Of a stretch of DNA of 64,000 nucleotides, positions 26,744 through 29,205 are shown in pieces. The notes below the pieces were generated by a model that was not told the origin of the DNA, made no database searches, and saw only the letters and a list, made by a program, of their open reading frames with translations. The position numbers and the translations under genes were made by a program. Source of the stretch: Acidobacteriota bacterium (GTDB taxonomy: Bacteria > Acidobacteriota > Blastocatellia > Chloracidobacteriales > Chloracidobacteriaceae). Every line of letters starts with the position of its first letter. Within the stretch, counting starts at the first letter, position 1. The stretch is from contig JACQXX010000056.1 of assembly GCA_016208495.1 (NCBI GenBank), positions 1 to 64,000 of the forward strand, read 5' to 3'.

Positions 26744-27331
26744 TCAGTTCGAAAACCCGGAACCCGGAACCCGGAACCCGGAACCCGGAACCCGGAACCC
26801 GGAACCCGGAACCCGGAACCCGGAACCCGGAACCCGGAACCCGGAACCCGGAACCCGGCACCCGGAACGAATACTGGCACCGCTCTCAGATTCCTTTGAC
26901 GGAATGGCTGTTCCCGGAGGCAGATTGTACTGATTATTCAGTGGATCCATGGTGTCTTTCGTCCGTGAAAAAGTCTCAACCTTGTCGCGTCTGACGATTT
27001 CAGCTTCAACATAGAGACCAGCCTGCTTGCTGGTTCGTTCAAAAAGTTTTTTGGCCTGTTTGCTCCCGTCACCATCAAATGGAAGAAAGGTGAAACCGGA
27101 AAGGATGCCGTAGCCTTTCTTTTGGGCTTCTTTTGAAAGCGCCTGTTGTTTGGTGTAGCTCTTTGCTTTTGATTCTGGATTTTCATATTGCAGAAAATCC
27201 AGGGCCGTTTGTTTATCAACCAGATAGCCCTTCACTACCTGGCGTCCAACGGGTTCCTGACCTATCGCTATCAGCGAAAACGACAAGACAAGACCCACCA
27301 TCAAAGTGATCATCCATATTGTGCGTGTCAT
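26744..27331 (-). CDS. Secreted protein of unknown function with repeat-derived tail
   Basis: This 195-residue frame begins with a signal peptide (WMITLMVGLVLSFSLIAIGQ). The globular part (about residues 25-150) contains VVKGYLVDKQTALDFLQ, KKGYGILSGFTFLPFDGDGSKQAKKLFE and VEAEIVRRDKVETFSRTKD; I do not recognise a family. The last 40 or so residues are GSGFRVP repeated, which is the AACCCGG array (26754-26858) read through: a 7-bp unit returns to the same frame every 21 bp, giving a 7-residue period. The natural C-terminus was probably replaced or extended by array growth. An IscB element is inserted about 30 bases upstream of the start. Confidence 0.7.
   Translation of the reverse strand: MTRTIWMITLMVGLVLSFSLIAIGQEPVGRQVVKGYLVDKQTALDFLQYENPESKAKSYTKQQALSKEAQKKGYGILSGFTFLPFDGDGSKQAKKLFERTSKQAGLYVEAEIVRRDKVETFSRTKDTMDPLNNQYNLPPGTAIPSKESESGASIRSGCRVPGSGFRVPGSGFRVPGSGFRVPGSGFRVPGSGFSN
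26754..26858. repeat. AACCCGG heptamer array, 15 copies
   Basis: Fifteen perfect tandem copies of AACCCGG are followed by one altered copy (CACCCGG). It starts with the same TTCGAAAACCCGG junction as the array at 5855. It is translated on the minus strand as the C-terminal tail of the gene at 26744-27331. Confidence 0.97.
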
Positions 27332-27376
27332 AGTGTGCTCACTTTCATCCTATCTTCAGCGTGGAAACCCGGTCCT

Positions 27377-28621
27377 TTAGGGCCGGGAGGAAAGGCTGCT
27401 CCTGCTTTGAAGTAAAGTTGTGGTTCTGGCCCTCAACCGAACACAGTTCGTTTTGATGTTGACGCTGTCGGTGAGACGAGTCCCGTCAATTGCACCCAGA
27501 GCGAAATACCCGCTACTGCGCTTGCCGGTGATAAACCCGATTCCTTTCACAGTTTGAATCAAATCAAACTTGCGCAGCCCAAACAGCTTGCTGGTTGGAA
27601 TCCGTTTCTGGCTGTGTTTGCCGGTGGTTTGCTGATAATCGCCGTTGCTGACGTGACGGTTGACGAAAACATTTCCGTTCCCGGCTTCTACGACTTCGCC
27701 ATCCTCACAACAAATGGCAATCGCATCAGTGGTGTGAGACTTGGGCAACTTCAGGAACTGCTCGCGCTTGTATTTGGTTTCGTAGCCGAAGGTTGGTTCA
27801 AACTCCCAGCCGGATACCTTGAGTTGGGACGCGATGATCCCCGCTTCGGTCGCCGGTTTGGTCACATTTCGTTTCGGTTTGATCTCAAACTTTCCCTGGT
27901 GCAACGCCTGATGACAGGTCAGGCACAGCGTGAGGAGATTTCCGTGATGGTTACCGCCCTGACGACTCTTGAACTGGAGGTGATGGACATTGAGTTTGAG
28001 GCTGTGGTTGATCTTTTGTCCGCTTTGACACTGGTGGCCGTCCCGGTGCAGCACGTAGGCTTTGACATGATACCAGTCCTTGAGCGGTCCGTTTTGATAT
28101 TCAACTCCGGTTACCTCCGGATTGACCAGCTTGTGAATGTCGAAACTTGCCGTTTCCACCTTCCATCGAGTCACAGGTAACAGCCGTTCCACCTGTCGTC
28201 GTTCCCGAAGATGCGACTCGACTTTGCTCCGAATCGAAGGTGGCAACCGGCCCGGGCGGCGCGATGCTCCCCGATTCTCAAATCTCGCCTGGCGATAGCG
28301 TGTTTTTCGGCTGCGCCTGGTCCGGCGATAGGCTTTGCGTTGTTCCATCTTGCGCGAAACATCAGTGCGTAAGGTGACTTCCGCCTGATACATCACTTTC
28401 CCATTCGCCACCGCCGCTGTGCCAACCTTGGCGCTTCCACTGTCCATCCCAGCCACCACTTCCTGCTTGTACTCCGATGAACCAAACCGCAGTTTGATGG
28501 TAAATGGCGTTTTCCGAACCACTTTCGCCTTCCCCTCTTTGAGCAACCACCTCGCCTTGGCCGGCGACGTCGGCATCAACGGTTTCCCCTCACAATTCAA
28601 AACATAGACAAAAACGAACAT
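27377..28621 (-). CDS. iscB: IscB RNA-guided nuclease (HNH + RuvC), Cas9 ancestor family
   Basis: This 414-residue protein has the full IscB order. The N-terminal PLMP domain is VYVLNCEGKPLMPTSPAKAR. RuvC-I is VVAGMDSGSAKVGTAAV, with its Asp. The arginine-rich bridge helix is KAYRRTRRSRKTRYRQARFE, and the RuvC-II Glu lies in KVETASFDIHKL. The HNH domain has LNVHHLQFKSRQGGNHHGNLLTLCLTCHQAL, RuvC-III is KSHTTDAIAICCE, and the C-terminal beta domain includes LFGLRKFDLIQTVKGIGFITG. IscB uses an omega RNA to cut DNA and is the presumed ancestor of Cas9. All visible catalytic residues are kept. The first zinc knuckle reads CQSG instead of CxxC, so one Cys is missing. The ATG at 28621 has a purine-rich AGAGAGGACA about 9 bases upstream. 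Confidence 0.93.
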   Translation of the reverse strand: MFVFVYVLNCEGKPLMPTSPAKARWLLKEGKAKVVRKTPFTIKLRFGSSEYKQEVVAGMDSGSAKVGTAAVANGKVMYQAEVTLRTDVSRKMEQRKAYRRTRRSRKTRYRQARFENRGASRRPGRLPPSIRSKVESHLRERRQVERLLPVTRWKVETASFDIHKLVNPEVTGVEYQNGPLKDWYHVKAYVLHRDGHQCQSGQKINHSLKLNVHHLQFKSRQGGNHHGNLLTLCLTCHQALHQGKFEIKPKRNVTKPATEAGIIASQLKVSGWEFEPTFGYETKYKREQFLKLPKSHTTDAIAICCEDGEVVEAGNGNVFVNRHVSNGDYQQTTGKHSQKRIPTSKLFGLRKFDLIQTVKGIGFITGKRSSGYFALGAIDGTRLTDSVNIKTNCVRLRARTTTLLQSRSSLSSRP

Positions 28622-28950
28622 AAGAAAAATGTCCTCTCTTCTCCTTGCGGAGAGTTGCGCGTATCAACCAACTGTGACCATTGGTTGAATCCGTCCTCCT
28701 CTCGACCGGATATGGGAAGGTTTGACGTGACGCGCACCGGAATTCCCTCCCGTTCCTTTTAACACGTTACCGTAGAGCGGCGGACTGAGGCGGCATCCGC
28801 CGGTACCTAATTTCTTCCCTATCGGTTCCCTGGATTTCGCCAGGGGGTCTGGTCAACCGAGGCTTGAACCACACCCAAACACCTCGGCCACTCCAAGCGT
28901 GGCATCGGGCCTTGGCACGACTCAAGCCTGGCCCTTTAGGGCCGGGTAGT
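28622..28950 (-). ncRNA. Omega RNA (HEARO) for IscB
   Basis: The 330 bases upstream of iscB fold into many stems. From the 5' side on the minus strand these are GGCCC-TAAA-GGGCC (28930-28943), a long-range GGCTTGA/TCAAGCC pairing (28923-28929 with about 28861-28867), CCCTGG-CGAAAT-CCAGGG, and GGCGGA...TCCGCC. Nearer the gene are CAACCAA...TTGGTTG and CTCTCC-GCAA-GGAG. This density of stems directly 5' of an iscB gene is what defines the HEARO/omega RNA class. In known systems the guide is at the RNA 5' end and comes from DNA outside the element, here just above position 28950. Confidence 0.75.
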
Positions 28951-28977
28951 TGACTTGAATATTTTGTTTTCGGGGGG

Positions 28978-29205
28978 CTGGATAATTTTTGAGGCTGAAG
29001 ACATTGGGCTGGGGGCTGAAGAAGTTGGGCTGAAAACATTGGGCTGAGAGGCTGAAGATTCGCAAGCTCAGGGCTGAAGGAAATGGGTAAAACCAATCTC
29101 AATCCCTCGTTGTCTTTAGCCCGAAGACCTCAGCCCAATGTCTTTAGCCCCCAGCCCCCAGCCCGACTTCTTCAGCCCGATGTCTTCAGCCCTGTTTTTC
29201 AATGC
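28978..29205. repeat. TTCAGCCC palindromic repeat block
   Basis: GGCTGAAGACATTGGGCTG units (28985-29060) face inverted copies CTTCAGCCCGATGTCTTCAG (29160-29190). The right end touches the stop of the M14 peptidase gene. If the omega RNA guide is copied from DNA flanking the element, it lies just before this block (about 28947-28978). Confidence 0.8.

What the first reader, a model, noticed from the sequence alone, without database searches (positions are those of the whole stretch)
27365..28950. Complete IscB-omega RNA element with both hairpin ends, no transposase
An IscB with every catalytic motif in place (PLMP, RuvC-I/II/III, bridge helix, HNH) sits behind about 330 bases of dense RNA stems. 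The pair is bounded by two nearly identical hairpins in direct orientation (27368-27387 and 28927-28946). These are the parts of an RNA-guided transposon-encoded nuclease, here in a probable acidobacterial chromosome. At 414 residues IscB is compact. In known systems the guide comes from DNA outside the left end, here about 28947-28978 read on the minus strand.
Basis: partly seen in the sequence, partly recalled or inferred. Interest (0 to 1): 0.85.

Follow-up and report, generated by a model that had tools for sequence, protein, structure and literature searches.

The report
IscB jumping element at start codons
This is a genuine RNA-guided IscB mobile element, one of 17 related insertions in this genome, and its family turns out to land unusually often exactly in front of the start codons of host genes, so that the guide RNA is copied from the host gene's own leader.

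Summary
The finding holds. Window 27349-28954 (minus strand) is an IscB-omega RNA (HEARO) element. IscB passes the curated IscB model, and the RNA passes the Rfam HEARO cut-off. Comparison of 17 genomic copies fixes both ends. Five copies carry iscB; twelve are 448-455 bp RNA-only derivatives with the same ends, each with its own guide. None carries a transposase.

The genome's non-interior ATGAA sites give 13% (p about 1e-4). Ktedonobacter racemifer repeats this (10/24 against 13%), and relatives in bacteria, an archaeon and viral contigs show the same junction. Guides of start-codon copies often contain the host's Shine-Dalgarno sequence (12/23 against 4/40). The iscB stop often overlaps or lies close to the host ATG, suggesting translational coupling.

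As a kind of system this is known. The start-codon habit is a real enrichment that I did not find described in the papers I could search; its cause is not settled. The window copy itself sits 17 nt upstream of its gene.

The parts
27349..28954 (-). Whole IscB-omega RNA (HEARO) element, 1606 bp
   Evidence: Ends shared by 17 copies with unrelated flanks
28955..28970 (-). Probable guide (about 16 nt of host DNA directly outside the left end); length taken from known IscB systems
   Evidence: Flank differs in every copy while GTCAAC at 28954 is constant
28693..28954 (-). HEARO / omega RNA scaffold
   Evidence: RF02033 95.8 bits, gathering score 83, model 1-211 of 211
28924..28946 (-). Left-end subterminal hairpin
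   Evidence: Direct repeat D6; conserved in copies
27377..28621 (-). iscB, 414 aa; its stop codon lies in the loop of the right-end hairpin
27357..27398 (-). Right-end hairpin
   Evidence: 8 of 11 consensus pairs show two-sided changes across lineages; copies
27399..27403 (-). AGGAG directly 5' of the right-end hairpin (possible Shine-Dalgarno of a split ribosome-binding site; function uncertain)
   Evidence: Sequence; kept in most own copies including the non-coding short ones
27344..27348 (-). Flanking target motif ATGAA
   Evidence: 17 of 17 own copies
27328..27348 (-). Six-codon frame (MKVSTL) opened by the motif ATG; its TGA overlaps the ATG of the downstream gene
   Evidence: Sequence
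26744..27331 (-). Downstream 195-aa ORF (probable exported protein), starting 17 nt after the motif ATG
   Evidence: no Pfam or NCBIfam match; no homologue in 14 relatives

Best explanation
A mobile IscB-omega RNA (HEARO/ISC) element that inserts directly 5' of ATGAA and whose omega RNA takes its guide from the host DNA just outside the left end, in the sense direction. Shown: protein and RNA family membership, exact ends, 17 copies with 12 RNA-only derivatives, target motif ATGAA, and an excess of insertions exactly at start codons. Inferred: (1) a Y1-type transposase encoded elsewhere moves the copies in trans; (2) IscB with its omega RNA cuts the empty site (guide plus ATGAA), which favours retention of the element; (3) at start codons the host promoter transcribes guide, omega RNA, iscB and host gene together; (4) host translation survives through the right end, either by termination-reinitiation from iscB, whose stop overlaps or lies close to the host ATG, or from the AGGAG-hairpin-AUG arrangement. 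Such insertions would be both productive for the element and tolerated by the host, which would explain their excess.
For: IscB and HEARO hits. 17 HEARO copies, 5 with iscB, shared ends, ATGAA at 17/17. Start codon at 9/17 against 13.3% of non-interior ATGAA, p 1.1e-4. K. racemifer 10/24 against 12.6%, p 3.5e-4; Scytonema 3/15 against 6.7%, p 0.08. Right-end model hits in other loci: 28/31 followed by ATGA, ATGG or GTGA, 18/31 opening a frame of at least 80 codons. Shine-Dalgarno in the guide 12/23 at starts against 4/40 elsewhere, Fisher p 3.7e-4. The only gatB of the genome has the element against its ATG. iscB stop inside the ATGA in 4 of 5 own copies, and ATGA or TGATG overlaps in several other lineages. 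ATGA/TGATG overlaps are known to couple translation (PMC6728339). Host proteins begin at the expected residue, e.g. MerR domain 1-68.
Against: About half of the insertions in multi-copy genomes are not at start codons. The null relies on a simple home-made gene caller, and copies within a genome are not fully independent. The window copy itself is 17 nt upstream of its gene, not at the start codon. AGGAG-like sequence next to the hairpin also occurs in a K. racemifer group ending in TATAAA that does not meet start codons, so it may serve transposition rather than translation. There are no RNA, cleavage or translation data.
Confidence: 0.8

Rival explanations
1. The start-codon excess is a by-product only: the transposase needs ATGA/ATGG/GTGA, these motifs are common at start codons, and insertions inside genes are purged. 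There is no special transcription or translation benefit.
For: The target motif is start-codon-like in most lineages; many copies are not at starts; 3% of all ATGAA and 13% of non-interior ATGAA are starts by composition alone.
Against: Observed 53% and 42% exceed the non-interior expectation about fourfold and threefold in two unrelated genomes, although separating a native Shine-Dalgarno from its ATG should be harmful, also in genes such as single-copy gatB.
Confidence: 0.35
2. The right-end hairpin with AGGAG is only a transposase recognition hairpin, as at other IS200/IS605-type ends, and has no role in translation of the host gene.
For: Both ends carry subterminal hairpins; two own copies have perfect palindromes made from either arm (L018, L020); a K. 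racemifer group that does not meet start codons has a similar GAGGCGG-hairpin end.
Against: AGGAG or AAGGAG is kept in nearly all short copies that no longer code for IscB, and gatB must still be translated downstream of one copy.
Confidence: 0.5
3. A domesticated, immobile IscB used by the host as an RNA-guided regulator.
For: Intergenic position near gene starts; one HNH zinc cysteine lost in all own copies.
Against: Catalytic residues are kept; many dispersed copies with different guides and sharp ends point to mobility.
Confidence: 0.07

Closest known systems
IscB-omega RNA / HEARO elements (Rfam RF02033; OgeuIscB, HfmIscB, Ktedonobacter racemifer copies)
   Same: Same protein family, same upstream guide RNA, guide from outside the left end, target motif at the right end, usually no adjacent TnpA (PMC9755519).
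   Different: HNH zinc CxxC is CxSG; ATGAA as flanking motif; most genomic copies are 450-bp RNA-only derivatives; placement at start codons quantified here.
IS200/IS605 superfamily insertion sequences with TnpB
   Same: Subterminal hairpins, short fixed target motif, guide RNA that records the insertion site (PMC11870625).
   Different: IscB rather than TnpB; no tnpA in the element; guide on the left side and motif on the right.
Translationally coupled gene pairs with ATGA/TGATG overlaps (PMC6728339)
   Same: The iscB stop overlaps the host start codon in four own copies and several relatives.
   Different: Here the overlap is made by a transposon insertion, and part of it is supplied by the target motif.

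Membership tests
IscB | Match to the curated IscB model | tested here: met
   NF040563 322.4 bits, cut-off 175
IscB | PLMP, RuvC-I/II/III, bridge helix and HNH with catalytic residues | tested here: met
   Alignment of five own copies plus one relative; HNH and RuvC-III compared with relatives. HNH zinc site lacks one cysteine.
IscB | HEARO/omega RNA directly upstream on the same strand | tested here: met
   RF02033 above gathering score
IscB | RNA-guided DNA cleavage next to a TAM | not testable with these tools
   Flanking motif ATGAA at 17 of 17 copies is consistent with a TAM
ISC / IS200-IS605-type mobile element | Several dispersed copies with identical ends and different flanks | tested here: met
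   17 copies
ISC / IS200-IS605-type mobile element | Fixed short target motif at one end | tested here: met
   ATGAA 17/17
ISC / IS200-IS605-type mobile element | Own Y1 transposase (TnpA) | tested here: not met
   None in the element; nine Y1_Tnp matches elsewhere in the genome without these ends. As a non-autonomous element it could still be moved in trans.
ISC / IS200-IS605-type mobile element | Empty site in a relative | tested here: inconclusive
   No homologue of the window's downstream gene in 14 relatives. For the gatB copy, relatives have gatB without the element.

The most novel reading that the evidence does not exclude
IscB elements of this group are start-codon-adapted parasites. 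They use the start codon itself as target motif, take the host's 5' leader and ribosome-binding site as guide, are transcribed from the host promoter, and carry at their right end a translation-restoring device (iscB stop overlapping or near the host ATG, or AGGAG-hairpin-AUG), so that even essential genes tolerate them; RNA-only offspring supply a pool of start-codon guides to a few IscB copies in trans.
Probability: 0.4. Interest if true: 0.8.

Novelty: new member of a known kind. Interest (0 to 1): 0.55.

Why it matters
IscB is a Cas9 relative used as a compact editor, and why its natural guides and target motifs look as they do is little understood. If the family really exploits start codons, its target motif, guide source, expression and host tolerance follow from one habit that can be tested directly. 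The genome also offers 12 RNA-only copies beside 5 nuclease copies, a natural test of guides acting in trans.

Tried and rejected
Hairpins as the element ends: rejected, copies continue about 8 nt (left) and 19 nt (right) beyond them. A resident transposase carrying the same ends: none found; the one motif match, near L028, lies in a coding sequence. Guide target elsewhere in the genome: no intact guide+ATGAA site within 3 mismatches. Empty site for the window copy: no homologue of the 195-aa gene in 14 relatives. Original HEARO, ISC and OMEGA papers (Weinberg 2009, Kapitonov 2015, Altae-Tran 2021): not held, so prior notice of start codons there could not be checked; from memory the HEARO paper gives ATGA/GTGA as integration sites. 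No paper in the library was found that links IscB insertion to start codons. Compactness as unusual: rejected, relatives are about 400-440 aa.

Full report
Observation. The ORF at 27377-28621 (-) is IscB by the curated model (NF040563 322 bits, cut-off 175), by Pfam RRXRR and by similarity to solved IscB structures. Directly upstream on the same strand lies a HEARO/omega RNA, RF02033, 95.8 bits against a gathering score of 83, covering the whole model, 28954-28693. The two similar hairpins exist in direct orientation.

Copies and ends. The genome (8.38 Mb, 177 contigs) holds 5 IscB genes, the four others 84-88% identical to this one, and 17 HEARO RNAs. Twelve are short elements of 448-455 bp with no iscB. 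All 17 share one left end (GTCAAC in 15, one-base variants in two) and one right end (...ACGCCGAAGATAGG and close variants), and host sequence differs immediately outside. This puts the window element at 27349-28954, 1606 bp. The hairpins are subterminal.

Target motif. Host sequence after the right end begins ATGAA in 17 of 17 copies. In other genomes, ends defined by where copies stop aligning abut ATGG, ATGA or GTGA in most groups (K. racemifer, Scytonema, a Clostridiales MAG). A second K. racemifer group ends in TATAAA instead, so the motif varies within the family, as do published TAMs (NTAAA for OrufIscB, NWRGNA as more optimal for engineered OgeuIscB; PMC13180657).

Start codons. In 9 of 17 own copies the ATG of the motif opens a host gene, with an in-frame stop within 18 codons upstream once the flanks are joined. 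The genes include gatB, a MerR regulator whose domain begins at residue 1, a sigma factor, a HAD hydrolase, a patatin-like phospholipase and an S41 peptidase. Of all ATGAA in 800 kb of this genome 3.1% meet the same criterion; of ATGAA not inside a called gene 13.3% do, giving p 1.1e-4 for 9 of 17. K. racemifer gives 10 of 24 against 12.6% (p 3.5e-4) and Scytonema 3 of 15 against 6.7% (p 0.08); the Clostridiales MAG, mostly contig ends, gives 1 of 7. An independent sign that these are real starts: the 20 nt outside the left end contain a Shine-Dalgarno-like sequence at proper spacing in 12 of 23 start copies and 4 of 40 others (Fisher p 3.7e-4). gatB is present once, and its only copy has the IscB element against its ATG; gatB of relatives lacks the element and starts near the same residue.

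Generality. A covariance model of the right end, built without the ATG, was run over 85 loci with IscB or HEARO relatives. Of 31 examined hits with sequence beyond them, 28 are followed by ATGA, ATGG or GTGA, and 18 have a frame of at least 80 codons from such a start. They come from Ktedonobacter, Athalassotoga, Clostridia, a Thermoplasmata archaeon, relatives in the same class and viral contigs. The model was trained on ends next to such motifs, a few loci share genomes with the training set, and some listed hits are weak, so the motif count is not independent; the start-codon count is less affected.

Translation. In four of five own copies the iscB frame runs through the right-end hairpin and stops at the TGA inside the ATGA. 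In the window copy, in K. racemifer and in many others it stops in the hairpin loop about 27-33 nt before the host ATG; other lineages show ATGA or TGATG overlaps, or stops 3-7 nt away. Overlaps of this kind couple translation (PMC6728339). The right end also carries AGGAG directly before the hairpin, kept in most short non-coding copies; with the hairpin formed it lies about 9-10 nt from the ATG. Whether it works as a ribosome-binding site is open, since similar sequence occurs at ends that do not meet start codons.

The window copy. Its motif ATG opens only six codons (MKVSTL), whose TGA overlaps the ATG of a 195-aa gene at 27331, so this copy sits 17 nt upstream of a gene start rather than at it. 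That gene has no homologue in 14 relatives, so no empty site could be shown. The guide (about 16 nt, 28955-28970 on the minus strand) plus ATGAA has no intact match elsewhere in the genome.

Mechanism. Most likely: transposition in trans by a Y1 transposase (nine Y1_Tnp matches, none with these ends), guide RNA transcribed from the flank, IscB cutting empty sites to favour retention. These steps are inferred from characterised IscB and TnpB systems. The start-codon excess is shown; its reason is not. Insertion there places the guide RNA under a host promoter in the sense direction, and the right end seems compatible with continued translation.

Novelty. The element is a new member of a known kind. 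I found no paper in the searchable library that links IscB insertion to start codons, but the original HEARO, ISC and OMEGA papers were not held, so this may have been noticed before.

Noticed in passing
L007-L010, L012-L014, L017-L021: Twelve RNA-only HEARO elements (448-455 bp) with the same ends as the IscB copies and different guides: a pool of possible trans-acting guide RNAs.
   Followed up: yes
L283, L313: Further apparently essential genes with elements against their start codon: a gyrA/parC-like gene in K. racemifer and gatC in Scytonema (named from sequence by eye).
   Followed up: no
L016 (C47:36029-36291): The omega RNA of this IscB copy looks chimeric: left part like the short elements (GTCAACAGACTCGG), right part like the window copy, suggesting recombination between two omega RNA subtypes.
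   Followed up: no
L297-L302, L305-L307 (K. racemifer): A second HEARO group, several copies about 408 bp long, ends in TATAAA instead of ATGG/ATGA and does not meet start codons; a natural contrast group.
   Followed up: partly
window 28993-29192: Large imperfect inverted repeats built from GGGCTGAAGA units just outside the left end; the 10-mer occurs 113 times in 800 kb of this genome, so a dispersed repeat family.
   Followed up: partly
window 26796-26865: Tandem GGAACCC heptamers run into the 3' end of the 195-aa ORF and encode a repeated RVPGSGF-like tail; the repeat recurs in the genome (59 matches to GGAACCCGGAACCC in 800 kb).
   Followed up: no
window 27377-28621 and L002-L005: All five own IscB copies lack the second cysteine of the first HNH zinc pair (CQSG for CxxC), while most relatives keep it.
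   Followed up: partly
L018, L020 right ends: Two short copies have perfectly palindromic right-end hairpins, each built from a different arm of the usual imperfect hairpin, as if one arm had been copied onto the other.
   Followed up: no
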